NCBI GenBank assembly: GCA_018063125.1
Contig: JAGOQY010000004.1
Span: 1-33,531 of the forward strand
Origin: Patescibacteria group bacterium
GTDB taxonomy: Bacteria; Patescibacteriota; Patescibacteriia; 2-12-FULL-60-25
Reading direction: 5' to 3'
DNA length: 33,531 nucleotides
Part shown: one piece after another, positions 11,669-33,531 of the stretch
How positions within the stretch are numbered: position 1 is the stretch's first letter
How the letters are laid out: each line of letters begins with the position of its first letter
Translations under genes and position numbers: made by a program
The notes under the pieces: generated by a model
Seen by the model: the letters and a program-made list of their open reading frames with translations, nothing else
Database searches by the model: none
What the model was told of the DNA's origin: nothing

Positions 11669-11672
11669 GGAG

Positions 11673-11936: not shown

Positions 11937-11950
11937 GAAGTCCTCCTCCG

Positions 11951-11967
11951 CCTTTCACCGTGAAAGG
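11951..11967 (-). other. Short hairpin between pheT and the downstream small gene
   Basis: CCTTTCA and TGAAAGG form a perfect 7-bp stem with a 3-nt loop, placed right before the GGAGGAGGA ribosome binding site. There is no U-run. It could stabilise the pheT 3' end or modulate translation of the next gene. Confidence 0.4.
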
Positions 11968-11999
11968 ACTCCCAAAGATGTCAGATTTTCCTCTTTTCG

Positions 12000-14393: not shown

Positions 14394-14396
14394 AGG

Positions 14397-15458: not shown

Positions 15459-15483
15459 AAGGTGTGGGCAGTGTAACAAATGA

Positions 15484-16638: not shown

Positions 16639-16647
16639 TGCAGGAGT

Positions 16648-17415: not shown

Positions 17416-18803
17416 TTTTTGATTTCCGTTGAGAGTTCTTCGATGCGTTTTTTGAGAGATCCTTCATCTCGCGCTTCGACGTTCAGACGGAGCAACGGCT
17501 CAGTGTTGGAAGCACGAACGTTAAACCACCAGTCGCTCGCTGGCTCAGACGGATTGCGGAACTCGATGCGAATTCCATCAATCTCGGAGACGAGGGACGC
17601 AGACGGGGCGTACTGCGATTTGAGACGAGCAATCGTTCCCGCCTTGTCCTCGACTTCGAAGTTAATCTCCTCGGAATGCGCATAGCGTCGAAGAGGCGCG
17701 ACCAACTCGGAAAGCGGCTTTTCTGAGCGGTGAATCAATCGTGCAATCAGTAACATCATCAGGTCTCCAGACTCACAGTTCCAAAGATCCTTAAAGTAGA
17801 AATGCATCGAGAGTTCACCTCCAAAAATCGCTCCGGTTTCGCGCATGAGACGCTTGATATTGGCGTGCCCAACTTTGCACATTTCTGCTCGACCACCAGC
17901 CTCTGTCACGATCTCCGGGACGGCCCAGGAAGAACGGACGTCGTAGTGGATCAACCCACCCGGAACATCGCGGAGCAGTTCCATTGCAGCAAGTGCCGTC
18001 AGAAGATCACCCGAAATCGGAACGCCTTTTTCGTCGACGAACCCCACGCGGTCCGCATCCCCGTCGAACGCCACGCCCATGATCGATTTTTCTTCCTTCA
18101 CGACCTCAATCAACTTCTCCAGCGTATCAACTTTCAGAGGGTTCGCTTCATGGTTTGGGAACGAACCGTCCGGATCGAAATAGAGTGGAGAGACATCAAG
18201 CCATGGAAGCTTCGAAATCAGTGTGGGAAGGATCGCGCCGCCCATCCCGTTTCCCGCATCGATCGCGAGTTTCATCTTTGGCATGTCGCTTGGGATACGT
18301 GCGAGCTTGATCACGTGTTCGACATATCGATCGAGTGCCCCCGGATCATCTTCCACGGAACCGATACGACCGCTGTCGATCGTTTTGGATGCGAGAAACG
18401 CGTCACGCAATTCTTCCATCCCACTCCCCTCGCCCACCGGTCGACAGTCTCCCATCGCAATTTTGAATCCGTTGTACTTTCCCGGGTTGTGGGAAGCCGT
18501 AATCATGATCCCCAAATCAAATCCCCCGTTCGACAATCCGAGCAGGATATTGAACATCGGAGTTGAACAAAGACCGATTCGGACAACGTCGACCCCAGAA
18601 GTGGTCAGTCCTTCGATGAGCGCGGCCTCGAGGGCTCCGGAAGTCAGGCGCATGTCGCGACCGACCATCACGCGCTTGGAACCGAAGTGCGCCGCGGCGG
18701 CCTGACCCAGGGTTCGGGCAAAGTCAGGATCAATCTCCTCTGGGGAGAGCGCGCGGATGTCGTAGGCTTTGAAAACAGATGCGAGTTTTGGGTCAGGGGC
18801 CAT
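17412..18803 (-). CDS. Phosphomannomutase/phosphoglucomutase (alpha-D-phosphohexomutase)
   Basis: The enzyme interconverts hexose 6-phosphate and 1-phosphate for nucleotide-sugar supply. The 463-residue protein has the four-domain layout. Domain 1 carries the phosphoserine loop MITASHNPGKYNGFK (Ser at about 107). Domain 2 holds the magnesium loop FDGDADRVGF (about 245-250). Domain 3 has the sugar-binding GELSMHFYF, the GE(M/L)S motif of PMM/PGM enzymes. Domain 4 has a phosphate-binding RASNTEPLLRL near the end. Whether mannose, glucose or both are used cannot be told from sequence; it resembles the dual-specificity AlgC group. I chose the ATG at 18803; a TTG at 18824 would extend into the lemA promoter. 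It is the first gene of the pmm-murI-rseP-pheS-pheT run. Confidence 0.94.
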   Translation of the reverse strand: MAPDPKLASVFKAYDIRALSPEEIDPDFARTLGQAAAAHFGSKRVMVGRDMRLTSGALEAALIEGLTTSGVDVVRIGLCSTPMFNILLGLSNGGFDLGIMITASHNPGKYNGFKIAMGDCRPVGEGSGMEELRDAFLASKTIDSGRIGSVEDDPGALDRYVEHVIKLARIPSDMPKMKLAIDAGNGMGGAILPTLISKLPWLDVSPLYFDPDGSFPNHEANPLKVDTLEKLIEVVKEEKSIMGVAFDGDADRVGFVDEKGVPISGDLLTALAAMELLRDVPGGLIHYDVRSSWAVPEIVTEAGGRAEMCKVGHANIKRLMRETGAIFGGELSMHFYFKDLWNCESGDLMMLLIARLIHRSEKPLSELVAPLRRYAHSEEINFEVEDKAGTIARLKSQYAPSASLVSEIDGIRIEFRNPSEPASDWWFNVRASNTEPLLRLNVEARDEGSLKKRIEELSTEIKK

Positions 18804-18806
18804 AGC

Positions 18807-18835
18807 TTTACAATTAGTCAGCAATTTTCTATGAT
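18807..18835 (+). promoter_or_regulatory. Sigma70-type promoter for lemA
   Basis: TTTACA (18807-18812) and TATGAT (18830-18835) are separated by exactly 17 nt, each matching consensus at 5 of 6 positions. The predicted start is near 18842, leaving a leader of about 30 nt before the lemA ATG with no clear Shine-Dalgarno sequence. It lies in the 68-base divergent gap with pmm. A weaker - strand pair (TTGTCA at 18862-18867, TACCCT at 18839-18844, 17 nt apart) could serve pmm. Confidence 0.7.
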
Positions 18836-18871
18836 TTTAGGGTAAAGATCTAACCATCCTCTGACAAGCCT

Positions 18872-19423
18872 ATGCTGACTGTTTGGATTCTCCTTGGTGC
18901 CCTCGTACTCATCGGTTTGTGGGCGATTGCGACATTTAATGGGCTTATTACGCTCAAGAATCGAACGGACGAAGCGTGGTCCGATATCGATGTTCAGCTG
19001 AAGCGCCGCTACGATTTGATCCCCAACCTCGTCGAAACCGTGAAAGGCTACGCCGGACACGAGTCTGCGACGATGGAAAAAGTGATCCAGGCTCGTAACA
19101 TGGCTATGGGCGCAAAGACCATGGGTGAGCACGTACAGGCCGAAAACATGCTTTCTCAGACCTTGAAGAGCTTGTTTGCCGTTTCAGAAGCGTACCCAGA
19201 TCTGAAGGCCAACACGAACTTTCTTCAGCTTCAGCAGGAGCTGACAGACACGGAAGACAAGATTCAGGCGTCTCGCCGCTTCTACAACGGCAACGTCCGC
19301 GACTTCAACACGAAGCTTCAGGTGTTCCCGACCAACATGATTGGTGGAATGCTCGGATTTACGAAACGCGAGTTCTTCGAAATTACTGAAGCGGAAAAAG
19401 CCAACCCTCAAGTGAAATTCTAA
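18872..19423 (+). CDS. lemA: LemA family membrane protein
   Basis: The 183-residue protein has one N-terminal membrane helix (about 3-22) and the helical LemA domain with its hallmark segments: DEAWSDIDVQLKRRYDLIPNLVETVKGYA, then LQQELTDTEDKIQASRRFYNGNVRDFN, and the end of the domain around FPTNMIGGMLGF. Function is unproven; LemA proteins are often next to M48 proteases or TPM-domain proteins and are linked to envelope stress. Here htpX follows at once, matching that common pairing. It has its own promoter and no visible ribosome binding site. Confidence 0.95.
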   Translation: MLTVWILLGALVLIGLWAIATFNGLITLKNRTDEAWSDIDVQLKRRYDLIPNLVETVKGYAGHESATMEKVIQARNMAMGAKTMGEHVQAENMLSQTLKSLFAVSEAYPDLKANTNFLQLQQELTDTEDKIQASRRFYNGNVRDFNTKLQVFPTNMIGGMLGFTKREFFEITEAEKANPQVKF

Positions 19424-19431
19424 CGAGTTCG

Positions 19432-19458
19432 AAAGAGGCGGGTGATCCCCGCCTCTTT
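19432..19458 (+). terminator. 11-bp hairpin between lemA and htpX
   Basis: Bases 19432-19442 and 19448-19458 are exact complements around a 5-nt loop. The 3' arm ends in CTTT and then GCTG, so the U-run is short. It may end part of the lemA transcripts, making LemA more abundant than HtpX, while the rest read through. Confidence 0.55.
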
Positions 19459-19471
19459 GCTGTCTATCTCT

Positions 19472-20359
19472 ATGTATTCCCACATTGATTCCAACCGACG
19501 AAAATCCTGGATCCTGATTTTTCTGTTTATCGGGATTCTGGCAATGGCGGGATACGTCTATGGTTACATCGTGAGCGACACCGGACCGTTTGGTTTGATC
19601 CTCGCACTCTCCATTTCGCTCGTCATGACACTCGTGTCGTGGTTTGCCGGAGACAAGATCGCTCTCGCGTCGAGTGGTGCACAGGAACTGACAGAGAAGG
19701 AAACGTTTCCAACATTGTGGAACGTGGTAGAAAATCTTTCGATCACGGCTGGAATCCCTCGTCCACGCATCTACGTCATCCAGGACGAATCTCCGAATGC
19801 GTTTGCGACGGGACGCGATCCAGAGCATGCGTCCGTTGCCGTGACGACCGGACTTCTCGCACGACTGGAGAAAATCGAACTCGAAGGCGTGCTCGCGCAC
19901 GAACTCTCGCACGTGAAGAATCTGGATATCCGCGTGATGATGTTGGTCATTGTGCTCGTTGGCGCGCTCACGATTCTCGGAGATTGGTTCATTCGCGCAA
20001 GCTTTAGCGGACGAGAACGAAAGAACGCCGGCCCCATCATGTTGATTGGAATCGCGTTCCTTATTCTCTCTCCCCTGATCGGGGAACTGATCAAGCTTGC
20101 GATCTCTCGAAAGCGTGAATATCTCGCAGATGCGTCTGGCGCATTGCTGACACGATATCCAGAAGGCCTCGCGAGTGCGCTTGAAAAAATTCGTGATGCG
20201 GCGATCCCGATGGAACGAACGTCTTCCGCGACAAATCATCTCTGGATTTCGGCGCCGGCAAAGGCTTCGTTCAGTTCAAAACTCACGGGACTGTTTTCCA
20301 CACATCCGCCGATTGATGATCGCATCGCCAAATTGCGTGCGATGGGAGATAATCACTAA
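19472..20359 (+). CDS. htpX: HtpX-type M48 membrane zinc metalloprotease
   Basis: This is a membrane protease of the quality-control family that degrades damaged membrane proteins. The 295-residue protein has two N-terminal TM helices (about 12-32 and 37-58), the zinc motif HELSH (about 142-146) and further TM segments (about 152-175 and 190-210). The third zinc ligand is in REYLADASGA (about 217-226). The C-terminal THPPIDDRIAKLRAM is characteristic. I chose the ATG at 19472; a GTG at 19442 would lie inside the hairpin and add an unlikely extension. It lies between lemA and the clpC-like gene, 5 bases from the latter, suggesting an envelope/proteostasis operon. Confidence 0.95.
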   Translation: MYSHIDSNRRKSWILIFLFIGILAMAGYVYGYIVSDTGPFGLILALSISLVMTLVSWFAGDKIALASSGAQELTEKETFPTLWNVVENLSITAGIPRPRIYVIQDESPNAFATGRDPEHASVAVTTGLLARLEKIELEGVLAHELSHVKNLDIRVMMLVIVLVGALTILGDWFIRASFSGRERKNAGPIMLIGIAFLILSPLIGELIKLAISRKREYLADASGALLTRYPEGLASALEKIRDAAIPMERTSSATNHLWISAPAKASFSSKLTGLFSTHPPIDDRIAKLRAMGDNH

Positions 20360-20364
20360 GAACC

Positions 20365-22842
20365 ATGCTTAACCCCGACCTTCTCGATCGATTTACGACA
20401 CACCTCAAGGAAGCGCTTCAAAAAGCGCTGAGTTTTTCGGTCATGAATGGCCGCGATCTTGTGGAGCCCGGAGATCTCATTGTCGGTTTGATGATGGAAA
20501 AAGGCTCTGTCGGCTCTGAGCTCCTCACGAAAGCTGGGCTCGACGTGAAAAAAGCGGAAGCGGCATTTCGTGGATTTCCGGCAACCACGGCGCGCATTGC
20601 GACGCCAGATCTTTCACTGGGTGTGAAACGCATCATCGAAAAATGTGTGTTGACCGCGCATCTTCATGAACACAAATACGTGGGAACGGAACATCTGCTC
20701 TCCGCGATTTTGGAGGGATCGTATCCGGACGTCACCGCATTCTTTGATGCGAACGGCGTGACACCGGGGCTTCTTCGCGAACAGGTTGTTCAAGTGTTGA
20801 AATCGACATCTCGTTTTCCAGAACTCGTGAACAGCGACGAACTGGAAGAACCGAACGACCAACGCCCGCCGGATGCGCCACGCGGGCCTCAGCCACCTCC
20901 ACCCGGACGCGCGCCGCGTGCTTCTGCGTTGGATTCGTTTACGCGTGATCTCACCAAACCAGAAACCGCAGAACAGCTTGATCCGGTCATTGGACGTGAT
21001 CGCGAATTGGAACGCGTGATCGAAATTCTGTGCCGTCGAAATAAAAACAATCCAATTCTTCTCGGAGAACCGGGTGTCGGAAAGACCGCAATCGTGGAAG
21101 GACTCGCCAAGCGACTTTCCGAAGGCGACGTGCCGGATGCGTTGCACGGAAAAAAACTTCTCTCGCTCGATCTTGCGCTGACGGTTGCGGGAACGATGTA
21201 TCGCGGAGAATTTGAAGCGCGACTCAAACAGATTCTCGATGAAGTTCGCAATGACGCGAACATCATCTTGTTTATCGATGAAATCCACAACATCGTTGGC
21301 GCGGGCTCAACAACCGGCTCGCTCGACGCCGCAAATATCTTGAAGCCGGCGTTGGCTCGCGGAGAAATTCGTTGTGTTGGGGCGACGACGTGGGCGGAAT
21401 ACAAGAAACACATTGAACCTGATGCCGCGCTCGAACGACGTTTTCAGCCTGTCACGGTGGAAGAACCATCACCGACGGCAACGCTTGGCATCATCGAAGG
21501 ATTGTTGGAGCACTACGCAAAATTTCATCGCGTCTCGTATGCCGCAGATGTGCCGGCGGCGTGTGTGAAATTTGCGGAACGCTATCTGACCGATCGTCAT
21601 TTCCCAGACAAGGCGATCGATCTTTTGGATGAAGCCGCGGCGTGTGTCATCGCGCGTCGACGTTCGCGTGAACGCATGGAACGACTTTCTGCGTTGGATC
21701 TCGCCATTCTTGCGGCAGATGAACTCAAGCAAGATTTTGTCGTCGAGGGAAAACTTGATGAAGCGGAAGTTTCTGCGCGTGAAGCAACACGATTGAAGAA
21801 AGAGCGAACGTCTCTCACCGCCGCCTACGAAAAACAACGCGAGAAGGATCAGCCCATCGTCACGATGATGGATGTTGCCGAAGTTGTTTCTCGCATGTCT
21901 GGTGTTTCGGTTCCCACGATTCTGGCAACAGAACGAGAACGAATCTCTACGCTGGGAGAGAATCTTCGTGGAAAAATTATCGGACAAGACGCCGCCGTGC
22001 TCGCGGTCGCAGACGTGGTTTCTCGCTCACGCCTCGGACTCTCAGATCCGAAGCGTCCAAAAGCGGCGATGCTGTTTGTGGGTCCATCGGGAACCGGAAA
22101 AACAGAAACCGCTCGCGCTCTTGCAATGGAATTATTTGGTCGGCCGGATGCGTTGATCAAACTCGACATGTCGGAGTTTTCGGAAGGACACACGGTTTCA
22201 AAACTTGTTGGCTCCCCTGCCGGATATGTCGGATATCGTGAATCCACAAAACTCACGGATGCGGTTCGCAAGCGTCCGCACGCGGTGGTGCTCTTCGATG
22301 AATTTGAGAAAGCCCATTCCGACGTACAAAATCTTCTCCTTCAAATCTTGGAAGACGGCACAATCTCGGATGGAACCGGCCGGCCTGTTTCATTCCGTCA
22401 CGCGTACGTCATCCTCACCTCCAACGTCGGAAGTGATCAGATCGGAAAGAAAACACTCGGGTTTGGCGGAGATGCCACGGACGCAAAAAATCTCATCAAG
22501 GACGAACTCGGACAACGCTTCCGCCCGGAACTTCTCAATCGATTGGATCGCACCGTAATCTTCCATCCGCTGGATCGTGAACCGCTGAAGGAGATTCTCC
22601 GCCGCGAAGTCTCGGAAATCTTGAATCGTGTCTCGAGTGTCCAAAACGTTGCATGCCACGCCGGAGACGATGTTCTCGAATGGCTCCTCGCACAGCCGCT
22701 TCCTCCGGAAGAAGGCGCACGAGCCGCACGAAGGCTTGTCGAACGTGAGGTGACCGCACTCATCGGAAGACTGCTCGCTGAACGTCCGCAGAAAAAAACG
22801 CTACAATTAAAAGCGACCGCCAAGGGACTGAGGATCATCTAA
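20365..22842 (+). CDS. clpC: ClpC-type AAA+ protein unfoldase
   Basis: This is a two-ring-domain ATPase that unfolds proteins, normally feeding the ClpP protease. The 825-residue protein has an N-terminal Clp-repeat domain (about 1-145), then a Pro-rich linker (about 165-190). The first AAA+ domain has Walker A GEPGVGKT (about 235) and Walker B ILFIDEIHN; a short coiled M-type segment follows (about 425-490). The second AAA+ domain has Walker A GPSGTGKT (about 574) and Walker B VVLFDEFEKAH. KKTLGFGG (about 694-701) matches the position of the ClpP-docking loop in ClpC, which suggests it works with ClpP, although clpP is not in the window. ClpB is less likely because the M domain is short and this loop is present. 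GATAAT lies 11 nt before the ATG and might be an internal promoter. Confidence 0.93.
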   Translation: MLNPDLLDRFTTHLKEALQKALSFSVMNGRDLVEPGDLIVGLMMEKGSVGSELLTKAGLDVKKAEAAFRGFPATTARIATPDLSLGVKRIIEKCVLTAHLHEHKYVGTEHLLSAILEGSYPDVTAFFDANGVTPGLLREQVVQVLKSTSRFPELVNSDELEEPNDQRPPDAPRGPQPPPPGRAPRASALDSFTRDLTKPETAEQLDPVIGRDRELERVIEILCRRNKNNPILLGEPGVGKTAIVEGLAKRLSEGDVPDALHGKKLLSLDLALTVAGTMYRGEFEARLKQILDEVRNDANIILFIDEIHNIVGAGSTTGSLDAANILKPALARGEIRCVGATTWAEYKKHIEPDAALERRFQPVTVEEPSPTATLGIIEGLLEHYAKFHRVSYAADVPAACVKFAERYLTDRHFPDKAIDLLDEAAACVIARRRSRERMERLSALDLAILAADELKQDFVVEGKLDEAEVSAREATRLKKERTSLTAAYEKQREKDQPIVTMMDVAEVVSRMSGVSVPTILATERERISTLGENLRGKIIGQDAAVLAVADVVSRSRLGLSDPKRPKAAMLFVGPSGTGKTETARALAMELFGRPDALIKLDMSEFSEGHTVSKLVGSPAGYVGYRESTKLTDAVRKRPHAVVLFDEFEKAHSDVQNLLLQILEDGTISDGTGRPVSFRHAYVILTSNVGSDQIGKKTLGFGGDATDAKNLIKDELGQRFRPELLNRLDRTVIFHPLDREPLKEILRREVSEILNRVSSVQNVACHAGDDVLEWLLAQPLPPEEGARAARRLVEREVTALIGRLLAERPQKKTLQLKATAKGLRII

Positions 22843-23873: not shown

Positions 23874-23883
23874 CTTGGCGTAT

Positions 23884-25131
23884 ATGTCGGAACGTCTCAA
23901 GAAGATCCTTTTTGCGGTTGGATTCATTCTCCTTTCTATTGGAATGGGATATGGATTGTATCGACTGTTCTTTGCCGCACCGACACCCACAGCTCCGGGC
24001 GAAGAAGTGACACCTGGAATCGGCGGAGAGCTCCCCGGCTCTGGTCTTGGCGGACCGATTACGGGCGCGACACCGACGGAACCCGGCGAACTCCCGCTTG
24101 TTTTTGGAGATCCGGCTGGAACGCCAGACTCGACCGAAGTTGATACCACGGACTACGGAGCTAGCGTCAACATTCTTCAACGAAGCGTGACGCAAGCCGT
24201 CGTTCCTTCTTCGGATGGAGATGGCGTACGATTCTACAATCCCGAAGATGGACGCTTTTATCGCGTGAACGCAGACGGAACCATCACCGAGCTCTCTGGA
24301 CGTCAGTTCTTCAACGTCGAAGATGTTCAGTGGGGTAATTCCTCAGACCAAGCGATTTTGGAATTTCCAGATGGGACAAATGTCTTTTACGATTTTGACG
24401 CCAAACAACAAGTCACGCTTCCAAAACACTGGGAAGATTTCGAATTCGCTCCCGATGATACTCGAGTCGTGGCGAAAAGCATCGGAACAGACGAAGCGAA
24501 TCGTTTTCTTCTCACGGCAAACCCAGACGGTGGAGAAGCACAAGCCGTTGAGCCGCTGGGACGAAATGCGGATAAAGTCCACGTGAACTGGTCACCAAAC
24601 AGCCAGGTTATCGCCTACGCAGAGACAGGCGAATTGCGCAGTGGAAACGAGCAGGAAATCTTGATGGTCGGACAAAATCACGAAAATTTTCGATCCATCA
24701 TTGCTCCGGGACAGGATTTTCTTCCGAACTGGTCCCCCGCTGGAAAACAGATCGTCTTCAGCGTTTGGAATACGGATAATGGGAATCGTCCCAGCCTCTG
24801 GATCACCTCAGCAGAACCCGCAACCATGGGACAGAATCGCCGTCGGTTGAATCTCAACACGTGGGCCGATAAATGCACCTGGGCCTCAGAATCCGAAATC
24901 TACTGCGCGGTTCCACAGGGTCTTCCTTCTAATTCCGGACTTCAGCGCAATCTGTTCGCCACGCTTCCGGATGATATTTATCGCATCAACCTCGCGAGCG
25001 GCGTCTCGACAAAGATCAATCTTCCCAACCAAAATCGCCCTGTTCGACAACCCGTCCTCAATGCGGATCAAACGAAGCTCTTTTTCTCGGACGCTGAGAC
25101 TGGTCAGCTGATTAGCTACGATCTCCCATAA
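23884..25131 (+). CDS. TM-anchored beta-propeller (TolB/PD40-like) protein
   Basis: The 415-residue protein has an N-terminal membrane helix (about 8-28), then a Pro/Gly/Thr linker (about 32-80), and an outer domain made of repeated WD40/PD40-like units. Repeat signatures include WEDFEFAPDDTRVVAKS, VHVNWSPNSQVIAYAE, FLPNWSPAGKQIVFSV and PVLNADQTKLFFSD. The fold is like TolB or the DPP4-type propeller, used for protein-protein contacts outside the membrane. No enzyme motif is seen. I chose the ATG at 23884 rather than the TTG at 23875 because it is directly followed by the basic-plus-hydrophobic anchor and fits the promoter. It lies 3 nt before the DsbA-like gene and probably shares its transcript. 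Confidence 0.87.
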   Translation: MSERLKKILFAVGFILLSIGMGYGLYRLFFAAPTPTAPGEEVTPGIGGELPGSGLGGPITGATPTEPGELPLVFGDPAGTPDSTEVDTTDYGASVNILQRSVTQAVVPSSDGDGVRFYNPEDGRFYRVNADGTITELSGRQFFNVEDVQWGNSSDQAILEFPDGTNVFYDFDAKQQVTLPKHWEDFEFAPDDTRVVAKSIGTDEANRFLLTANPDGGEAQAVEPLGRNADKVHVNWSPNSQVIAYAETGELRSGNEQEILMVGQNHENFRSIIAPGQDFLPNWSPAGKQIVFSVWNTDNGNRPSLWITSAEPATMGQNRRRLNLNTWADKCTWASESEIYCAVPQGLPSNSGLQRNLFATLPDDIYRINLASGVSTKINLPNQNRPVRQPVLNADQTKLFFSDAETGQLISYDLP

Positions 25132-25134
25132 TCT

Positions 25135-25830
25135 ATGATGCATCGTACACGCCTCATCCTCCTTGTAAGCATCATCGGATTATTTATTTTGCTCACCGGA
25201 TGGCTTGTGTGGCGCGAAGTTGATCTTCGAATGAACTCGTTTGTTGCCGGTGCGCCGCCAGAAAATCTCCGCGAAGTGTTGCTCCCGCAAACCATCGACA
25301 TCAATCTGATGCGACCTCCGGCGCTTCGCCCGATCGATCCCGTGCGCTATGGCGATATCAATTCGCAGATGTCGGTCATTGAGTTCGGCGACTACGAATG
25401 TGAAGCGTGTCGTGCGAATGCGACCGCGATTCGAAATGTTCTCCCAGAATTTGATGGAAAAGTACGCTTCGTGTGGCGCGACATGCCGGTCACAGAAAGC
25501 CATCCTCACGCCATGAACGCGGCAATTTTTGCACGTTGCGCGGGATATCAAGGACGATACTGGGAAGCACATGATGCCCTCCTCAGTGCGGCGGCGCTCT
25601 CAAGCTCCGCGATTGATGCTCTCGCAAAACGATTAGACGTGAATCTCACCGCACTAGGCACCTGTCGGAATGACGGGGAAGTTCGACGAATTATCGAAGA
25701 AGATATCACCGCCGGTCGAGCCGATGGGGTGAACTCGGTTCCCCTCCTCTTCATCGGGACAAAAGCCTACAGCGGAACGCTCACAGAGGCTCAACTTCGT
25801 GAAGCTATTCGATCGTTTCTCGAATCATGA
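25135..25830 (+). CDS. Membrane-anchored DsbA/BdbD-like thiol-disulfide oxidoreductase
   Basis: The 231-residue protein has an N-terminal signal anchor (about 5-26) and a thioredoxin-fold domain with an inserted helical part (Thioredoxin_4/DsbA type). The active-site CxxC is in FGDYECEACRAN (Cys at about 87 and 90), and the cis-Pro loop is in GVNSVPLLFIG (about 203). It likely introduces or shuffles disulfides outside the membrane. One extra Cys pair (ARCAG and GTCRND) could form a structural disulfide. The stop overlaps the start of the next gene (ATGA), whose product is Cys-rich, and the two Cys-module proteins lie within 4 kb. This makes them likely substrates (inference). No DsbB or VKOR partner is in the window. 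Confidence 0.92.
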   Translation: MMHRTRLILLVSIIGLFILLTGWLVWREVDLRMNSFVAGAPPENLREVLLPQTIDINLMRPPALRPIDPVRYGDINSQMSVIEFGDYECEACRANATAIRNVLPEFDGKVRFVWRDMPVTESHPHAMNAAIFARCAGYQGRYWEAHDALLSAAALSSSAIDALAKRLDVNLTALGTCRNDGEVRRIIEEDITAGRADGVNSVPLLFIGTKAYSGTLTEAQLREAIRSFLES

Positions 25831-27263
25831 TCTCAAAGAAGTCCTCACAGAACATTGCTCGCCAATACCTCGCAAGTATCGGCGTTGGCGTTTTATGCGC
25901 AATCTCGATTGGATCTTTTTTCTACGGGGCAGAGGTTCTTGCCGCAGACACGCCAAAATTCATTGCTCCGCACTTGAATACGCCAATCCCCGGACTTAAT
26001 TTCAAAGATCATCCCATCGTCATTAACCCCACGGAAGGAACCGCAAAAATCACCTTTCTCAGTGCCTATATCGGTGCGGCGTACCGATATCTTCTGGGCG
26101 TCAGTATCGTTGCGGCGGCGGTCATGATTGTGTGGGGTGGGTTCAAATACATCATGGGATCGGTTTCGGATGTGCAGGATGGAAAAAACATCATCAAAGA
26201 CGCAATTATCGGACTCGTGCTCATCTTTGGAAGCTTTACGATTCTTGCGGCGCTGAATCCAACTTCGCTGACGGAGCTTAAACCTTTGACTGTCGAATAC
26301 GTGACACAAACTCCGCTTGAAGTTAGCAAGGTGTACAGCGAAGGCGTTCCGAACTCTGCCATGGCTTCCTGGGAAAAGAGCCCTCCGCAACAGGTTCCGC
26401 CACCGCCAGCCCCACCAACACCACCGACCGCCGATGGGAGTCAACCAGAACCAGCCCCCGCACAAACAGCCGTCGAAGGTTGCGGAGGTGCGGCATATCA
26501 ACCTGCTACGGCACTATGCAACTCTCAGGCAGATTGCGAACAACGATTTTGTAATCAAAAAGATTACACTCCTCCGGCGGGTCTTCCAGATCCAAGCACG
26601 TTAGTTGGCTTTATCGATATTTTTCCTCCAACACAAAAAGAGCAGATCATGGAAAAAGGAATTGGATTTTTTCCGGTTGGAGAACTCTGCTCCGGACCGA
26701 AAGGATGCGCAACAACAAAACTATTCAACATTACAACGCACGGACCGAGCGCGAAGCAAACGAACCTCGCTCGCATGCAAGGCGGAATGATTTTTCGCCC
26801 TGAAGTTCGTGATGGCCTTGTGAAAGCTGGTGCGGAAGCAAAGAAACGAGGATATTTTTTGATTGTCGGCGATGGCACACGAACGATCCCTGGCGTCGCA
26901 CAAGCCTGGTGTGCACGCGTGAAATCTTCGGGAGGTAGCCAGGGACTGGCGCGACCCGGCGCCTCTCCGCATCTTTTAGGCGTATCCGTGGATATTGCGC
27001 TCTATCAACTCATCGACGGCGGAACTCGCTACCGCCAACTCACCGTCGTTGGAATCTGCGGCCAAGTCGCAAACCAACAGGCGATCGGACTTGAACACAT
27101 GCGGACCATGGAAGAGATTATGACGTCAGCAGGCTTCAAACACATGTGCAGTGAAGTTCACCACTACAACTTCCGTGGTGTTTACTCCATTGACTGTACG
27201 CAGTGCGAATTTCCCGCAAAGTTCTGGGAAAAGGAATCTGAAAAAGCCTCGGGATGCAAATAA
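25827..27263 (+). CDS. TrbC/VirB2-like membrane protein fused to an M15/VanY-type peptidase domain
   Basis: This 478-residue protein has a signal peptide (hydrophobic about 16-36, cleavage after VLAA). The TrbC/VirB2-like module (about 50-162) has NTPIPGLNF, AYRYLLG, two TM helices with GGFKYIMG between them, and DAIIGLV. A Pro-rich spacer (about 188-215) and a short Cys cluster (four Cys at about 219-242) come next. The C-terminal domain (about 310-457) carries the zinc peptidase signature of VanX/VanY enzymes: His382 and Asp389 in SPHLLGVSVD, then Glu443 and His446 in EVHHYNF, with the same spacing as VanX. This predicts a D,D- or L,D-carboxypeptidase trimming cell-wall peptides, held at the membrane by a pilin-like module. 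Additional Cys pairs suggest disulfides. Whether the cut target is the own wall or a neighbouring cell is unknown. Confidence 0.88.
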   Translation: MISKKSSQNIARQYLASIGVGVLCAISIGSFFYGAEVLAADTPKFIAPHLNTPIPGLNFKDHPIVINPTEGTAKITFLSAYIGAAYRYLLGVSIVAAAVMIVWGGFKYIMGSVSDVQDGKNIIKDAIIGLVLIFGSFTILAALNPTSLTELKPLTVEYVTQTPLEVSKVYSEGVPNSAMASWEKSPPQQVPPPPAPPTPPTADGSQPEPAPAQTAVEGCGGAAYQPATALCNSQADCEQRFCNQKDYTPPAGLPDPSTLVGFIDIFPPTQKEQIMEKGIGFFPVGELCSGPKGCATTKLFNITTHGPSAKQTNLARMQGGMIFRPEVRDGLVKAGAEAKKRGYFLIVGDGTRTIPGVAQAWCARVKSSGGSQGLARPGASPHLLGVSVDIALYQLIDGGTRYRQLTVVGICGQVANQQAIGLEHMRTMEEIMTSAGFKHMCSEVHHYNFRGVYSIDCTQCEFPAKFWEKESEKASGCK

Positions 27264-27266
27264 TGA

Positions 27267-29084
27267 TTACGGATTCTCGTTGAGCGGCATACAACAGCGA
27301 AAGCTGTTTTCCGGAACCCGCTCGATGACATTGTGATGCGATCCCCCTCCCCAACGTTGCTGACATTTTGGATCCGCATTCTTGTTTGCGATGTGTGCAA
27401 TTGGGAAATAGAAAAAGTTCCCCCAGATATAATCTAGACCGACGCTTGATGCGGTATTTGAAGTCCGTTGCTCCACAGTTTTCTGCGCACCAGAATCGGT
27501 GAGCATGATCTCCTGCGCATTTCCGGAAAGATCGGCCACACCTTCGGGCGTAAAACAGCCCGGACGCGCTCCACTTGGTTGGAGCGCCGTTGCGGTCCGA
27601 GCTCTCTCCATCATCTCCTGAGTGGTTTTTGCATTCTGAGCTGTTTTTGAATTCGTGCTCTTTAATAACGCCGATCCACCAGCGGCTAAGAAACTATTCT
27701 CCGGTTTTGTCACCGCGCCACTGGAGGCGATCAAGGCTCCGGCTGCTTTTCCCTGAACTTCGAGGATGCTGAACGGCGTGGCGGCGCTTGGATTGTTATC
27801 GTAGTTGCAGGGCGCGGGAGGATTTGCCGTCTTTTCAACAGAATATTTGTCAGGAATGCGGGCATACACTCCATTAATCATGGTCGGGCCGTACTGATAT
27901 GTATTCTCTCCTTTCGGACCCAAGCAGGCGCGTGTCCATTCAGAATCTGCACACAGCCGCTTCCCCTGAGCCGCGCAATACCAATCCGCTTCAAATTGAG
28001 AGACGAGCTGAAATGGCTTTACTCCCTGTTGATTTGGCGCTTCAAAAATATCCATGCAAAATGACGGAACGATCTTTCCGGTCTTTTTCTGATATTCATC
28101 CGTTGCACGAATGGGAACCATCACATCCGGACAACGGCCCTGCGCCACAAAAACTCCATTCGCGTCTTGCACCACCGTTCCTGGCGCTGGTTTTCCCGGC
28201 TCAACAGGCGGTACTTTCGGGTCCGGAGGAACTTCAGGAGCGACCTTCCCGCCGGGGCCTTCCACATACACGGGAACTTCAACACCTGGACCCGACGGCT
28301 GTCCTGGAACCGTCGCGGCGGCCATCACGCGTTTTCGCTCTTCCACTAAATCCGTATACGATTTTTGAGCGATCACCGCAACTTTCAAGCCTTTAAAATC
28401 GACGAGCGCGGGATTCAGCGTGATCAGGATGACGTGAGCAGAGAGCACCATCACGAGCCCAATGATCGCATCTCGAATAATCTCTTTCCCGCGTTCAATG
28501 CTTGAGAGCGTTGTTCCGAGGATATAATGGAATCCTCCATAAACCACGGCGATCGACGCCGCCAGAAGAACGATCCCGAGCAAATATCGATACGCCGCAG
28601 AAACGTATTGCGCGAAAAATGGAATCACTGCCTCTCCCCCATCCACGACAACACGACTGGCGAAGGTGAGTCCAGGGATCGGAACATTCAACTTTGGAGG
28701 AAAAATGTCATCATCCGAAGGAGCCGCAGTTCCACCGGTGCTCGAAGAGCTCCCCGTATTTGCGCCGTATGATTGAGCGCTCACGGGAGGCGCGGAACAA
28801 ACTCCAGACCCCCCGCTTGCAATCGTCTGGCATTGCGCGTCGGTGAGCGTCGTCGGCTCACAAGTCACCCCTTCCAACGCGGAATTTGTGGTACTGGATA
28901 GAAGCTCTCCACATGTCGTCGCCTCTCCCGTCAAACAAATATTCTTCCCCGCATCACCCGTCTTCACACACTTACAGCACGCCGCTTGCGCCACCGACGT
29001 GGAAAAGATCGTCCCGACGAGAAACAGCGCCGTCGTAAGGCGTATTGCGGAAAGGAAAAATCGGACGGGACGATTCCGGTTCAT
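27267..29084 (-). CDS. TrbC/VirB2-like membrane protein with N-terminal eight-Cys module and C-terminal FGE-sulfatase (SUMF1) domain
   Basis: The 605-residue protein begins with a signal peptide (about 8-34, ending VAQAA). An eight-Cys module (36-96) has spacing C-C-x-C-x10-C-x7-C-x16-C-x9-C-x10-C. The TrbC/VirB2-like module (about 132-240) includes NVPIPGLTF, AYRYLLG, GGFHYILG and DAIIGLV. A Pro-rich spacer (about 260-303) leads to an FGE-sulfatase-like domain (about 315-600): FCMDIFEAPNQQG, AADWYCAAQGKRL-type segments (here SQFEADWYCAAQGKRLCADS), SEWTRACLG, VADLSGNAQEIM, and a final SFRCC. FGE-fold proteins may oxidise Cys in sulfatases or simply bind ligands; activity here is not predictable. 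About 70 residues near 440-510 form a Ser/Ala/Lys-rich insert unusual for the family. It is convergent with the M15 protein gene (3-base gap) and divergent from its closest paralogue. Confidence 0.88.
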   Translation of the reverse strand: MNRNRPVRFFLSAIRLTTALFLVGTIFSTSVAQAACCKCVKTGDAGKNICLTGEATTCGELLSSTTNSALEGVTCEPTTLTDAQCQTIASGGSGVCSAPPVSAQSYGANTGSSSSTGGTAAPSDDDIFPPKLNVPIPGLTFASRVVVDGGEAVIPFFAQYVSAAYRYLLGIVLLAASIAVVYGGFHYILGTTLSSIERGKEIIRDAIIGLVMVLSAHVILITLNPALVDFKGLKVAVIAQKSYTDLVEERKRVMAAATVPGQPSGPGVEVPVYVEGPGGKVAPEVPPDPKVPPVEPGKPAPGTVVQDANGVFVAQGRCPDVMVPIRATDEYQKKTGKIVPSFCMDIFEAPNQQGVKPFQLVSQFEADWYCAAQGKRLCADSEWTRACLGPKGENTYQYGPTMINGVYARIPDKYSVEKTANPPAPCNYDNNPSAATPFSILEVQGKAAGALIASSGAVTKPENSFLAAGGSALLKSTNSKTAQNAKTTQEMMERARTATALQPSGARPGCFTPEGVADLSGNAQEIMLTDSGAQKTVEQRTSNTASSVGLDYIWGNFFYFPIAHIANKNADPKCQQRWGGGSHHNVIERVPENSFRCCMPLNENP

Positions 29085-29092
29085 TCATGAGA

Positions 29093-29101
29093 AGTATAGC
29101 A
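29093..29101 (-). promoter_or_regulatory. Extended -10 promoter of the FGE-domain gene
   Basis: On the - strand TGCTATACT ends 8 nt before the ATG at 29084. A start 7 nt downstream would make this mRNA practically leaderless. It is divergent from the element at 29144-29152. Confidence 0.6.
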
Positions 29102-29143
29102 GTGAAAACGACCTCGCGGGAGATCCTCCGAGCGGCCTGCACG

Positions 29144-29152
29144 TGATACACT
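29144..29152 (+). promoter_or_regulatory. Extended -10 promoter of the lysozyme-like-domain gene
   Basis: TGATACACT ends 12 nt before the in-frame ATG at 29165, matching the spacing at other genes in the window. The TACACT hexamer is weaker than TATACT. It supports the ATG at 29165 over the GTG at 29153. Confidence 0.5.
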
Positions 29153-29164
29153 GTGCATGATTCG

Positions 29165-30808
29165 ATGGTTTCACGATCTAGGCTCATCTTTTCGATTGCG
29201 GGATTTCTGGCAAGCGTTTTTTTGTCGTTTTTCCCGAGCGTCGCCTCAGCCGCATGCTGCAAGTGTCACCCCGTAAATGCCCCATCCACAAACGTCTGTC
29301 TCACCGATCCGACATTTGATTGCCCACAGATCGTTTCCGGCTCTCAAAACGCGGCAATCCAAGGCTACACCTGCGAAACAGACGCTCTTTCGGATACGGC
29401 GTGCAAGGCGCTCAACTCAAATCCAAGTGCGGTATGCACCATCGGACCATCTCCCGCGCAAACCTATAAACCTCCAGCCGCGGGAACAGCTTCCGGTGAA
29501 GCGCCAGAAAAATTTGAAGAAATTAAATTCAATTTGAACGTTCCGATTCCAGGGCTCACATTTTCCCCCATCACGACGGTTGGTGCTGGAGGCGAAACAC
29601 GTCTGACAGTTCCATATTTTGCAGAATATGTGAGTGCTGTTTATCGATATCTTTTAGGCATCGTGGTATTCGCGGCCGGAATCATGGTGGTCTATGGTGG
29701 ATTCCACTACATTCTCGGAACCACGCTCTCGAGCGTCTCCAAGGGTCGACAGATTATCCGTGACGCGATCATCGGCCTCGTTCTCGCGTTCTCTGCGTAT
29801 ACGATTCTGACCGTTCTGAATCCCGCCACGACGACGCTGGATGCGATCAATATCTCGTACATCACACAACAGCCACATCTCACATCCGTTCCATCTGACT
29901 CCTATTTCAATGCTCTCAGAGCAGAAGGGAATGCGACGATCCCGGATGGACTCGGATCTTCGGGACAGCTCGAATCATCGCAAGGAGGATCTCCCCCAAA
30001 ATACAGCGGCTCAGGAACCATGCAGAGCGGAAGTTGCGAACTTGTGCTGAACCAAGCCGGGATTCCGACGGTCGAATCGCTGTATCAATGTGGAATCAAG
30101 GTTGCGAATGATGTGGGGATCCCACCCTGCTACACCGTCGTCGCAATCAATCATGAATCCTATCTCGCCCTTCCAAATCTTGCGGGACACGATGAGAACG
30201 TCACCGCAAAAGTTGGTAAAGGAGGTTCACTGATCTACGCGCGACAAAAATTTCTTGAATCCGGTGTCACCTACCAAGGAAAACCCATCACGGATGCCGG
30301 GATGATGAATGATGATACGATCGACTACACAAAAGAAGATTTAGGATTTGATAAACGTTTTTCACATGGTGGTGGAATCATGGGAATGACGATCCCCTGC
30401 ATCGCTGGAAAATGCTACTCCCAGCGAGATCGATTGGATCCATACAAAGGAATCGAAGGTCCAACGCTCGGCATTCGCGAAGCGATCAAAGCTTCAAAGA
30501 TGAGTGCGACGGATCCAGCGGCCGTCCGAAAAGTATGGGATCTGTATCGCGGCGTCGATCCGGCCGGACGCACAAAAGAGACGCTCGAGTGCTTCAAGAA
30601 AAAAAGCCCGATGGAGATGATCATTCCCATCCAATTTAATATTTGTCGCGGAGACCTTCCCCTGGATCCCGCAGGATGTAAATCCGCTGCTGCGGAGATG
30701 AAATCTCGTGGACTGCCGGTTCCCGAATCTGCGTGCGCTCCCGTTCTCAACTGTGCGGACAAACGCATGCCCATCAAAAAAGAAGATGGGAAGCTTCAAG
30801 TTCGATAA
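29165..30808 (+). CDS. TrbC/VirB2-like membrane protein with eight-Cys module and lysozyme/lytic-transglycosylase-like domain
   Basis: The 547-residue protein has a signal peptide (about 6-29, ending VASAA). The eight-Cys module (31-91) is spaced exactly as in the divergent neighbour. The TrbC/VirB2-like module (about 125-237) has NVPIPGLTF, VYRYLLG, GGFHYILG and DAIIGLV. A Ser/Gly-rich spacer follows. The C-terminal domain (about 290-495) has VVAINHESYLALPNLAGHD, where the Glu (about 331) sits like the catalytic Glu of lysozyme-type folds. It also has RFSHGGGIMGMT, like the G-x-M/G-L-M-Q motif of lytic transglycosylases, and later Cys pairs. This suggests peptidoglycan strand cleavage, but the assignment is by motif only and is less sure than the M15 call. 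The ATG at 29165 gives a clean signal peptide and fits the promoter spacing. Confidence 0.85.
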   Translation: MVSRSRLIFSIAGFLASVFLSFFPSVASAACCKCHPVNAPSTNVCLTDPTFDCPQIVSGSQNAAIQGYTCETDALSDTACKALNSNPSAVCTIGPSPAQTYKPPAAGTASGEAPEKFEEIKFNLNVPIPGLTFSPITTVGAGGETRLTVPYFAEYVSAVYRYLLGIVVFAAGIMVVYGGFHYILGTTLSSVSKGRQIIRDAIIGLVLAFSAYTILTVLNPATTTLDAINISYITQQPHLTSVPSDSYFNALRAEGNATIPDGLGSSGQLESSQGGSPPKYSGSGTMQSGSCELVLNQAGIPTVESLYQCGIKVANDVGIPPCYTVVAINHESYLALPNLAGHDENVTAKVGKGGSLIYARQKFLESGVTYQGKPITDAGMMNDDTIDYTKEDLGFDKRFSHGGGIMGMTIPCIAGKCYSQRDRLDPYKGIEGPTLGIREAIKASKMSATDPAAVRKVWDLYRGVDPAGRTKETLECFKKKSPMEMIIPIQFNICRGDLPLDPAGCKSAAAEMKSRGLPVPESACAPVLNCADKRMPIKKEDGKLQVR

Positions 30809-30863: not shown

Positions 30864-32231
30864 ATGTCGAAATCCGCTCCCATGTACGGCTGTTCAAACT
30901 GTGATGCGCAGTTTTTGAAATGGGCCGGACGATGCACCGAATGTGGCGCATGGGGATCGCTCAAAGAATCTGGCGGAGACGCTGAAGGCGCAAAACCAGA
31001 GACCGGACGCGTTGCGGGAAAACCACAAACACCGATTCCGTTCACACAAGAAACAACGGTCAAAGCAGATGTCCGCGCCACGGGACTCGGATCTCTGGAT
31101 GGCGTACTTGGCAGCGGACTCGTCGATGGCTCTGTCACACTGATTGCGGGAGAACCGGGAATTGGAAAATCCACGCTCCTCGCACAAGCCGCTCTTGCCG
31201 CCGCGGCAACCGGACGAAGAATCGTGTACGTGACGGGAGAAGAATCTCCCATGCAGGTTCGTCGAAGACTGGAACGACTTTCAAAAACACTTCCGAACTC
31301 TCTCGCGTTTGTGAACCACACGGATGCGGGAATTTTGGCGGCCACGATCGAAGAAGTAAAACCGGATCTCACCATTATCGACTCCGTGCAGACACTCCGT
31401 TCGAATCATGTTGCCGGAGAACCTGGCGGCGCCAGTCAGGTCAAAGCGAGCGGTGCACAAATCACGGAAGCCGCAAAACGCGCGCACGTTTCCGTCATTC
31501 TCGTCGGTCAGGTGACGAAAGACGGAGATATTGCAGGACCGCGTGTACTCGAACATTTGGTAGACACGGTTCTTTTTCTCGAAGGAGATCGCGGTCATCG
31601 ATTTCGTCTTCTTCGTGCACTCAAACATCGATTTGGTCCAACAGATGAAGTCGCGGTTCTTGCGATGACGGAACTGGGATTGGAACCCGTGGAAGATCCA
31701 TCCAGCGAGCTATTGCGAGATCGTGCGCAAGGAATTTCTGGTTCTGCGATCACGTGCCTCATTGAAGGACACCGACCGTTGCTTTTGGAAATCCAATCAC
31801 TCGTCTCCCCTGCGGGATACGGAACTCCGGTGAGACGCACGACAGGAACAGACACGGCACGACTCGGAATGCTTCTGGCCGTGCTCGCGCGACGAAGTGG
31901 AATTTTTGCCCTTGATAAAGACGTCTACGCAAATGCCGCCGGTGGAATGGATGCACGAGATCCAAGTATGGATCTTGCGATCTGCTTAGCGATCGCGAGC
32001 GCCGTCAAAGACACACCACTCGATCCGCGTCTTGGTGTATTTGGAGAAGTTGGTCTTGCCGGTGAACTTCGTCCCGTTGGGCTCCCAGAACTTCGTCTCA
32101 AAGAACTTGGACGCATGGGTTTCGCCACCGCGATCGTCCCGCGTGGACAGTCAAAAGGCGCGCCAAAAGGAATGGAAGTGAAGGAAGCGGGAACGGTACG
32201 TGAGGCGCTTCAGATCGCGCGCGTTTTGTAA
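30864..32231 (+). CDS. radA: DNA repair protein RadA (Sms)
   Basis: This is a hexameric RecA-like helicase that helps extend D-loops in recombination and repair. The 455-residue protein has an N-terminal C4 zinc finger (CSNC then CTEC, 10 residues between). The RecA-like ATPase follows, with Walker A GEPGIGKST (about 93-101) and Walker B region LTIIDSVQTL. The RadA-specific motif is at about 251-255, and a Lon-protease-like C-terminal domain with the conserved ANAAGGMDARDPSMDLA segment ends the protein. The normally strict KNRFG motif reads KHRFG here, an Asn to His change that still leaves Lys and Arg. A weak purine-rich GAAGAAAG precedes the ATG. Its convergent neighbour recG also acts in recombination. 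Confidence 0.96.
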   Translation: MSKSAPMYGCSNCDAQFLKWAGRCTECGAWGSLKESGGDAEGAKPETGRVAGKPQTPIPFTQETTVKADVRATGLGSLDGVLGSGLVDGSVTLIAGEPGIGKSTLLAQAALAAAATGRRIVYVTGEESPMQVRRRLERLSKTLPNSLAFVNHTDAGILAATIEEVKPDLTIIDSVQTLRSNHVAGEPGGASQVKASGAQITEAAKRAHVSVILVGQVTKDGDIAGPRVLEHLVDTVLFLEGDRGHRFRLLRALKHRFGPTDEVAVLAMTELGLEPVEDPSSELLRDRAQGISGSAITCLIEGHRPLLLEIQSLVSPAGYGTPVRRTTGTDTARLGMLLAVLARRSGIFALDKDVYANAAGGMDARDPSMDLAICLAIASAVKDTPLDPRLGVFGEVGLAGELRPVGLPELRLKELGRMGFATAIVPRGQSKGAPKGMEVKEAGTVREALQIARVL

Positions 32232-32280: not shown

Positions 32281-33531
32281 CTATTCCTGATGCGAAGATT
32301 CCCTGAGTTTCATGACGCGCTTCCGTAATTCCGGAAGCGTTTTGAGATCATCAACGAGAAGTTCTTGTGCCATCTCACGCGCGTCGGCCATGAGCGCAAG
32401 ATCATCCGCTTTTGCGGCGCGAAATGCCGCTTCCCCGCTCTGGTTCGTTCCTAAGAGATTTCCCTCTCCACGAAATTTTAAATCCGCTTCGGCGACAGCG
32501 AATCCGTCATTTGTTTGCTCAAGAACACGCAATCGACTGAGCGACATATCCGCAACGCCATCCGTGGGAGCGAGAAGACAATACGATGGTAGAGATGAAC
32601 GTCCGACACGACCGCGGAGCTGATGAAGTTGTGCGAGACCAAATCGCTCTGCACCTTCGATGAGAATGACGGTGGCGGTTGGAACATCCACACCAACTTC
32701 AACGACCGTTGTCGCAACGACGACATCGAGTTCTCCGGCGGCGAGCGATTCCATACGACCGTCTTTTTCTTTTGCGGAGAGTCGCCCGTGAAGTGCGGCG
32801 ATGCGAAGTCCACGCAACGGACCAGAAGAAAGTTTGCGTGTTTCCGTTTCCACACTTCGCACGCCACCTTCATCATCATCCTCAATCAACGGACAGACGA
32901 TAAACGCACGGCGACCCGCAGCAGCTTCTGTTCGAATCAGATCGTACGCACGTTCTCGACCTGCTTCGCCAATCGCGAGAGATGTTTTAATCGGGAGACG
33001 TCCTGCCGGTTTTGTCTTGATGATGGAAACGTCGAGATCACCAAAAAGCGTCAACGCAAGTGAACGCGGGATTGGTGTCGCAGACATCGAGAGAAGATGT
33101 GGAGATCTTCCATCCGCTCGCGTTTCCACGACAAGCGTCTCACGTTGAGCGACGCCGAATCGATGCTGTTCATCCACCACGGCTAGCGCGAGATCTGGCG
33201 GAGATTGTCCCTTTACGAGAAGCGCATGCGTTCCCACCGCAACGATCCGGCCAAGTTTCAAACGATCTTTTGCTTTTTCTGGGGTGAGCTTTGTTTCTTC
33301 TCCCCCTTCATACAAATAACGTGTAGACGAGGTGTAGAGCAGGACAGGAATCTGATGTGGAACCAGAAAACGCTTGAACGTTTCTGCGTGTTGTTTGGCG
33401 AGAAGATCAGTTGGTGCCATCACCGCCGCAGAAGAACCGGCACGAAACACCAACGCAGAAAGCATGGCCGCAACCGCGGTTTTACCGGTTCCCACGTCCC
33501 CTTGCAGGAGTCGGCGCATCGGCCGCTCGCT
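32281..33531 (-). CDS. recG: ATP-dependent DNA helicase RecG, C-terminal part (runs off the window)
   Basis: This is a branch-migrating helicase that remodels stalled forks and Holliday junctions. The visible 416 residues begin at the window edge with SERPMRRLLQGDVGTGKT (Walker A) and continue with the Walker B/DEQHRFG box, SATPIPRSLALTLFGDLD, and the second RecA-like domain (VATTVVEVGVDVP, ERFGLAQLHQLRGRVGRS). The C-terminal RecG wedge-clamp region (GEGNLLGTNQSG) follows. Full-length RecG is near 700 residues, so the N-terminal wedge/OB domain lies beyond 33531. No frameshift is seen in the visible part. It is convergent with radA. Confidence 0.95.
   Translation of the reverse strand, partial: SERPMRRLLQGDVGTGKTAVAAMLSALVFRAGSSAAVMAPTDLLAKQHAETFKRFLVPHQIPVLLYTSSTRYLYEGGEETKLTPEKAKDRLKLGRIVAVGTHALLVKGQSPPDLALAVVDEQHRFGVAQRETLVVETRADGRSPHLLSMSATPIPRSLALTLFGDLDVSIIKTKPAGRLPIKTSLAIGEAGRERAYDLIRTEAAAGRRAFIVCPLIEDDDEGGVRSVETETRKLSSGPLRGLRIAALHGRLSAKEKDGRMESLAAGELDVVVATTVVEVGVDVPTATVILIEGAERFGLAQLHQLRGRVGRSSLPSYCLLAPTDGVADMSLSRLRVLEQTNDGFAVAEADLKFRGEGNLLGTNQSGEAAFRAAKADDLALMADAREMAQELLVDDLKTLPELRKRVMKLRESSHQE

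What the first reader, a model, noticed from the sequence alone, without database searches (positions are those of the whole stretch)
25827..30808. Three paralogous pilin-like membrane modules, each carrying a different exported domain
Three neighbouring proteins share one module: a [ST/NV]PIPGL segment, AYRYLLG or VYRYLLG, two TM helices around GGF(H/K)YI(L/M)G, DAIIGLV and LNP. Each is then followed by a spacer and a different domain: M15/VanY-type peptidase, FGE-sulfatase fold, or lysozyme-like domain. TrbC/VirB2 pilin subunits are normally about 100 residues with no enzyme cargo. A cluster that swaps wall-active and other domains onto one pilin-like anchor looks like a modular surface-display or delivery system, possibly for attaching to or feeding on a host cell. 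The shared module and fusions are seen in sequence; the delivery role is inference.
Basis: partly seen in the sequence, partly recalled or inferred. Interest (0 to 1): 0.9.

Follow-up and report, generated by a model that had tools for sequence, protein, structure and literature searches.

The report
Pilin subunits carrying swappable wall enzymes
In a group of ultrasmall bacteria (Candidatus Uhrbacteria and relatives) a fixed spot in the genome, close to a type IV secretion machine, holds one to four proteins in which a pilus-subunit-like membrane hairpin carries an interchangeable exported domain, usually one that looks able to cut bacterial cell walls; this suggests a built-in tool kit for opening cell walls where the machine works.

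Summary
Three intact ORFs (25827-27263 +, 27267-29084 -, 29153-30808 +) share a ~120-residue module that matches Pfam T4SS_pilin and aligns with the genome's own short VirB2-like pilins (hhalign 97.8%, E 8e-13). Their C-terminal domains are unrelated: an M15 peptidase with all four catalytic/zinc residues, an FGE-fold domain, and a lysozyme-like domain (the last by motif only). It is a class-wide arrangement, not an oddity of one contig. In 33 genomes, 77 such proteins carry about 15 cargo families; the recognised ones are mostly wall hydrolases (NlpC/P60, C39, M15, glucosaminidase, SLT). They sit at one address, beta-propeller/DsbA-[1-4 cargo genes]-radA-RecG, 8-37 kb from virB4 in 9 of 12 near-complete genomes. 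Modules resemble each other within a genome far more than expected, while cargo families are shared between genomes: one module, exchangeable cargo. All seven FGE loci hold the same kind of trio as the window. Most likely these are cargo-bearing minor pilins, or pilin-derived anchors, of the Patescibacterial T4SS that display a wall-opening kit outside the membrane. Entry into a pilus, and whether host or own wall is the target, are inferred. I found no earlier description in the literature searched.

The parts
25827..27263 (+). P1: signal-type N-terminus, pilin module, Pro-rich spacer, M15 peptidase domain (478 aa)
   Evidence: start overlaps the stop of the DsbA-like gene by 4 bp (ATGA)
25968..26333 (+). 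pilin module of P1 (aa 48-169)
   Evidence: PF18895 E 3e-6
26754..27224 (+). M15/VanX-VanY-type domain of P1; H382, D389, E443, H446 match the family's zinc/catalytic residues
   Evidence: boundaries approximate
27267..29084 (-). P2: signal-type N-terminus, Cys-rich domain, pilin module, spacer, FGE-fold domain (605 aa)
28338..28697 (-). pilin module of P2 (aa 130-249)
27285..28088 (-). FGE-sulfatase-fold domain of P2 with a large insertion
   Evidence: PF03781 1e-8; family alignment; boundaries approximate
29153..30808 (+). P3: signal-type N-terminus, Cys-rich domain, pilin module, spacer, lysozyme/SLT-like domain (551 aa)
29528..29896 (+). pilin module of P3 (aa 126-248); AlphaFold2 gives a two-helix hairpin aa 155-188 / 192-222
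30023..30712 (+). lysozyme/SLT-like domain of P3 (motif level only; candidate Glu335)
   Evidence: boundaries approximate
25135..25830 (+). DsbA-like exported thioredoxin-fold oxidoreductase, regular upstream neighbour of the cargo genes
   Evidence: PF13462 2.7e-19; synteny
23875..25131 (+). TolB-like beta-propeller membrane protein, conserved upstream neighbour
30864..32231 (+). radA, conserved downstream border of the cargo bay
32281..33531 (-). recG (cut by the window end); in relatives virB4 lies beyond it

Best explanation
The three proteins are cargo-bearing paralogues of the VirB2-like (PF18895) pilins of the Patescibacterial T4SS. Each is exported by an N-terminal signal and inserts its pilin hairpin in the membrane with a short basic loop inside and both ends outside. 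The C-terminal, disulfide-rich domain is thus displayed on the outer face, folded with the help of the co-encoded DsbA-like oxidoreductase. The bay between dsbA and radA holds a species-specific set of such subunits, usually a peptide-cutter plus a glycan-cutter and sometimes an FGE-fold domain. Because the modules are kept alike within each genome whatever they carry, I think they dock on one common partner: the T4SS platform or its pilus, as minor subunits. There they open peptidoglycan locally, a VirB1 role built covalently into pilins, for the cell's own T4SS exit and/or the contacted host's wall. SHOWN: homology to pilins, unrelated exchangeable cargoes, M15 catalytic residues, fixed locus, virB4 linkage, within-genome likeness of modules. 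INFERRED: topology, incorporation into a T4SS or pilus, enzyme activity, target wall.
For: PF18895 hits in all three. Module profile vs the own genome's short pilins: hhalign 97.8%, E 8e-13 over 70 columns. The genome has 13 PF18895 proteins including a six-gene short array, virB4 near a pilin gene, and two VirD4-like ATPases. Of 3403 protein pairs, 3334 are similar in the module and 235 in the cargo at E<1e-4. Cargo Pfam tally: C39, FGE, M15/VanY, glucosaminidase, SLT, NlpC/P60, GDSL. Nearest module lies in the same genome for 34 of 69 (1.6 expected, maximum 8 in 2000 shuffles). Clearest case: genomes G002 and G016, whose two modules are 82%/79% identical within the genome with unrelated cargoes, while same-cargo modules are 44% across genomes; the DNA match stops about at the module edges. 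Fixed frame propeller-DsbA-[cargo]-radA. VirB4 8-37 kb away in 9 of 12 near-complete genomes, and continuous with RecG-radA in 5 of 6 loci read. All 7 FGE genomes carry FGE + (M15 or c4) + (c2 or c7); 0 of 10000 shuffles reach 7. Cargo averages 11.6 Cys, the module almost none. AlphaFold2 gives a confident hairpin in P2 and P3.
Against: No structure, localisation or activity data exist. A hairpin alone does not prove polymerisation, and the cargo is about three times the size of the pilin part, so at most a minority subunit is plausible. Within-genome likeness of modules can arise by neutral gene conversion between neighbouring paralogues. The lysozyme-like reading of P3 rests on a motif. The FGE-fold domain is not an obvious wall enzyme. 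Glycan plus peptide complementarity is only p = 0.027 with classes chosen afterwards. The short pilin array lies elsewhere in the genome.
Confidence: 0.55

Rival explanations
1. The module is a pilin-derived but non-assembling two-helix membrane anchor. The proteins are ordinary membrane-tethered exported enzymes (autolysins and a binding domain) for the cell's own wall; the T4SS link is historical.
For: Cargo families are common autolysin types; class-wide conservation fits housekeeping; the module adds an IPGL and LNP segment that short pilins lack.
Against: Linkage to virB4, strong species-to-species cargo turnover and within-genome homogenisation of the module are not needed for a plain anchor.
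Confidence: 0.3
2. The proteins are T4SS substrates (effectors) released into the host envelope, the pilin-like part acting as a transport signal.
For: VirD4-like ATPases present; wall-degrading T4SS effectors are known in other bacteria (own knowledge).
Against: Each has a signal-type N-terminus and a conserved membrane hairpin, which fits insertion in the own membrane, not T4SS translocation; I saw no candidate immunity genes beside them, though none were searched for systematically.
Confidence: 0.08
3. Within-genome module likeness reflects neutral gene conversion only and carries no information on a shared docking partner; the proteins need not work together.
For: The tracts are limited to the only DNA the paralogues share.
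Against: Does not explain the fixed address, the kind of cargo or the trio rule; otherwise compatible with the main explanation.
Confidence: 0.07

Closest known systems
VirB2-like pilin arrays of Patescibacteria (PF18895; PMC12102498; PMC12857230)
   Same: Same pilin family, paralogous arrays in the same phylum, T4SS in the same genomes
   Different: Those arrays are described as small pilins, 2-11 genes; the passages I read do not describe subunits that carry enzyme domains, nor a fixed dsbA-radA bay
VirB1-type peptidoglycan hydrolases of T4SSs (TrsG/CD419/VirB1; PMC12102498)
   Same: Wall hydrolase linked to a T4SS; in monoderms often two-domain
   Different: Not fused to a pilin; here the hydrolase kinds are many and exchangeable
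Minor or tip subunits of pili (VirB5, type IV pilus minor pilins; partly own knowledge)
   Same: Pilus-associated subunit carrying a functional head domain
   Different: Not VirB2-based in conjugative pili; no wall hydrolase kit
Peptidase and lysozyme genes downstream of virB4 in Ca. Southlakia epibionticum (as cited in PMC12102498)
   Same: Wall enzymes beside a Patescibacterial T4SS, essential for epibiotic growth
   Different: Described as homologues of peptidase and lysozyme; a fusion to pilins is not reported in the text I read and was not tested here

Membership tests
VirB2-like T4SS pilin (PF18895) | sequence match to the family profile | tested here: met
   3e-6, 5.3e-5, 1.1e-4 (only P1 over the curated cut-off there); all three over the cut-off in the genome search; hhalign with own short pilins E 8e-13
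VirB2-like T4SS pilin (PF18895) | two hydrophobic helices as a hairpin | tested here: met
   hydropathy; AlphaFold2 helices 155-188 and 192-222 in P3, 156-189 and 193-223 in P2
VirB2-like T4SS pilin (PF18895) | small subunit (~100-150 aa) without further domains | tested here: not met
   478-605 aa with large extra domains; hence a variant, not a plain member
VirB2-like T4SS pilin (PF18895) | cleaved signal peptide | tested here: inconclusive
   signal-type hydrophobic N-termini with AxA-like sites by inspection; no signal-peptide program available
VirB2-like T4SS pilin (PF18895) | assembles into a pilus | not testable with these tools
   needs microscopy or a structure
T4SS locus | VirB4 and VirD4 in the genome, linked to the genes in question | tested here: met
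   VirB4 on C9, VirD4-like on C8 and C45; linkage of the bay to virB4 seen in relatives; in the window genome itself virB4 is on another contig
M15 peptidase (P1 cargo) | SxHxxGxxxD and ExxH zinc/catalytic residues | tested here: met
   H382, D389, E443, H446; invariant in 5 homologues; PDB profile match
Formylglycine-generating enzyme (P2 cargo) | FGE-sulfatase fold | tested here: met
   PF03781 1e-8
Formylglycine-generating enzyme (P2 cargo) | catalytic/copper-binding cysteine pair near the C-terminus (own knowledge) | tested here: inconclusive
   C-terminal motif is FRCC, without the Cys pair I recall for true FGE; not structurally checked, so not filed as an active FGE
Lysozyme/SLT fold (P3 cargo) | SLT profile or fold match | tested here: inconclusive
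   no Pfam, PDB or PHROGs hit in P3; weak SLT hits in two homologues; model of the cargo poor

The most novel reading that the evidence does not exclude
A 'muralytic pilus': a T4SS fibre or base complex whose minor subunits are covalently armed with a species-specific, exchangeable set of peptidoglycan-cutting and ligand-binding heads, by which ultrasmall epibionts breach the wall of the host cell.
Probability: 0.28. Interest if true: 0.93.

Novelty: new variant of a known kind. Interest (0 to 1): 0.78.

Why it matters
The role of the T4SS in Saccharibacteria is described as completely unknown although it is essential in the one genetically tested case (PMC11665869, PMC12857230). A conserved, virB4-linked bay of pilins that carry wall hydrolases gives that question a concrete, testable handle (which bonds, whose wall, at which site). 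It would also be a rare example of a secretion-pilus subunit family used as an interchangeable enzyme carrier.

Tried and rejected
AlphaFold2 of P3 (pLDDT 68) and P2 (53.6) modelled the hairpin and N-terminal domain but not the cargo; Foldseek against PDB returned nothing significant for either. Sequence searches of the P3 cargo alone or as profile against PDB, PHROGs and Pfam gave nothing firm. The wide module alignment A1 was too variable for a contig scan; a narrower one worked. I considered a shufflon-like inversion that swaps cargo between the convergent P1 and P2 genes and rejected it for now: compared with G007 and G012 the M15 and FGE genes have changed places whole, with their N-termini, not by exchange inside the module. 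Misassembly or frameshift: rejected (open frames, same order in independent genomes). Diversity-generating retroelement acting on the FGE-fold domain: not tested. c4 as a relative of M15: profile comparison negative.
Full report
OBSERVATION. All match PF18895 T4SS_pilin. Pairwise, the ~120-residue module is 47-59% identical and the cargoes are unrelated. P2 and P3 are homologous over their first ~245 residues (Cys-rich N-terminus plus module) and then diverge completely.

IS IT A PILIN? A profile of the module aligns with the short pilins of the same genome over 70 columns, hhalign probability 97.8%, E 8e-13; the shared signature is roughly GGFxY...G...(V/I)..(G/A)(K/R)..I..AIIGL. An unrelated pair of profiles from this set (cargo c6 against c4) gave 0.1%. 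AlphaFold2 predicts a tight hairpin of two helices of 31-34 residues in P2 and P3. Every one of the three has a signal-type N-terminus, and the inter-helix loop is net positive (+1 to +3), so both ends are most likely outside; this is inference from the positive-inside rule, not a measurement.

CARGOES. P1: M15, with profile hits to D-Ala-D-Ala carboxy- and dipeptidases of known structure and the His/Asp/Glu/His set invariant in five homologues. P2: FGE-sulfatase fold, but the C-terminus ends FRCC and lacks the cysteine pair I recall for active FGE, so it may be a binding domain. P3: lysozyme/SLT-like on motif only; its cargo family c2 has an invariant Glu after a conserved PC motif, one member touches SLT at 0.019, another SLT_3 at 0.079, and it aligns weakly with family c7 (hhalign 48%, E 1.8e-4).

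GENOME. The window lies in a 906-kb, 77-contig genome (82% complete) with 13 PF18895 proteins: a short-pilin array (six hits on C40), a pilin near virB4 (C9), a 627-aa and a 3468-aa pilin fusion with Ig-like and Cys-rich repeats side by side (C53), a 661-aa fusion next to a second DsbA-like gene (C17), and the three here. VirB4 is on C9, VirD4-like ATPases on C8 and C45.

RELATIVES. 38 of 38 relatives have PF18895 proteins and 55 of 57 have module matches. In an even draw of 380 genomes of the phylum, all those of the same class that are listed (33 counting the own genome) match the module profile at E<1e-8; outside the class the hits are mostly to the pilin core. From loci of the own genome and its relatives I extracted 83 module proteins; 77 of them, from 33 genomes and with a cargo of more than 150 residues, were used in the tests below. 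Similar pairs at E<1e-4: module 3334 of 3403, cargo 235 of 3403. Pfam finds among the cargoes C39 (7), FGE (7), M15 (6), glucosaminidase (4), SLT (2), NlpC/P60 (2) and a GDSL esterase (1). I take the largest family, c1, as NlpC/P60-like from its conserved DC...FGD...H pattern; the table does not say which members gave the two NlpC/P60 hits. Families c4, c7, c9, c10, c12 and c16 stay unidentified.

ONE ADDRESS. The order beta-propeller, DsbA-like, [1-4 cargo genes], radA (then recG) recurs in most loci, including other families of the class; in a few genomes cargo genes also lie beyond radA or recG or elsewhere. P1 overlaps the DsbA-like stop by 4 bp. VirB4 lies about 8-9 kb (G029, G037, G039, G041), 13 (G002), 15 (G018), 20 (G010), 22 (G013), 37 (G012) or 85 kb (G044) from the bay; in G020 and G036 it is on another contig. 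In five of six loci read, VirB4-ComF-...-RecG-radA is continuous. In the window recG is cut by the contig end, so virB4 may be just beyond; that is not shown.

MODULE VERSUS CARGO. The nearest module is in the same genome for 34 of 69 proteins (1.6 expected), and carries the same cargo family for 19 of 75 (6.8 expected). In G002 and G016 the c3 and c9 proteins have modules 82% and 79% identical within the genome and 44% across genomes, while the c3 and c9 cargoes are 30-36% identical across genomes and unrelated within; the DNA match (78%) ends about at the module edges. This is concerted evolution of the module or repeated cargo exchange. It fits a constraint to dock on one shared partner, but neutral gene conversion would look the same.

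A TRIO. All seven genomes with an FGE cargo also carry one of {M15, c4} and one of {c2, c7}, as in the window (M15 + FGE + c2); 10000 label shuffles gave 0.53 on average and never more than 4. The rule was noticed first and tested afterwards, and the genomes are related, so the number overstates independence. A looser test, peptide-cutter plus glycan-cutter in one genome, gives 16 against 11.6 expected, p = 0.027, with classes partly inferred.

MECHANISM AND LIMITS. Best reading: minor, cargo-bearing VirB2-like subunits or pilin-derived anchors that put wall-opening enzymes on the outer face near the T4SS. In current T4SS models VirB2 is recruited at the VirB6 platform (PMC12857230), and VirB1 opens the wall (PMC12102498). 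In most Patescibacterial classes VirB1 is not tightly associated with virB4, and the authors suspect that other glycosidases may fill the role (PMC12102498); pilin-borne hydrolases would be such a solution. Use against a host is attractive given the epibiotic life of the phylum, but no evidence here separates it from use on the cell's own wall.

NOVELTY. PF18895 is named in one paper of the library, which treats small pilins and arrays of 2-11 genes; the passages read do not mention enzyme-bearing pilins, and further searches found none. Its supplements and figures were not read. Subscription papers, including the primary Southlakia genetics study, are not held.

Noticed in passing
G000:C53:9256-11139 and 11136-21542 (L022): Adjacent 627-aa and 3468-aa proteins, both with an N-terminal T4SS_pilin hairpin followed by Ig-like (Big_5, TIG) and Cys-rich repeats; many relatives have the same ~640 + 3300-4100 aa pair, and G002 has an open frame of 14266 aa with the hairpin. 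Possibly giant pilin-anchored adhesins.
   Followed up: partly
G000:C17:8842-10827 (L019): 661-aa Cys-rich pilin-hairpin protein of a separate conserved family (c14), preceded by a second DsbA-like gene.
   Followed up: partly
G000:C9:1479-4063 (L020): VirB4 appears split in two neighbouring genes (226 and 633 aa), and the split recurs in six relatives.
   Followed up: partly
G000:C40:5005-8117 (L018): Array of about six short VirB2-like pilins, some with Cys-rich N-terminal parts, beside a solute-binding protein gene.
   Followed up: no
window 4402-6768 (-) and 3203-4369 (-): A 788-aa protein with a GGDEF match and a 388-aa protein with a weak Baseplate_J match beside DNA polymerase III alpha.
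   Followed up: no
window 27267-29084 and relatives: The FGE gene is convergent with its M15 or c4 partner in most loci (FGE> <M15 or <c4), with the pair reversed in the window.
   Followed up: partly
L103:1360-4884: A 1175-aa protein with two pilin modules in one chain.
   Followed up: no
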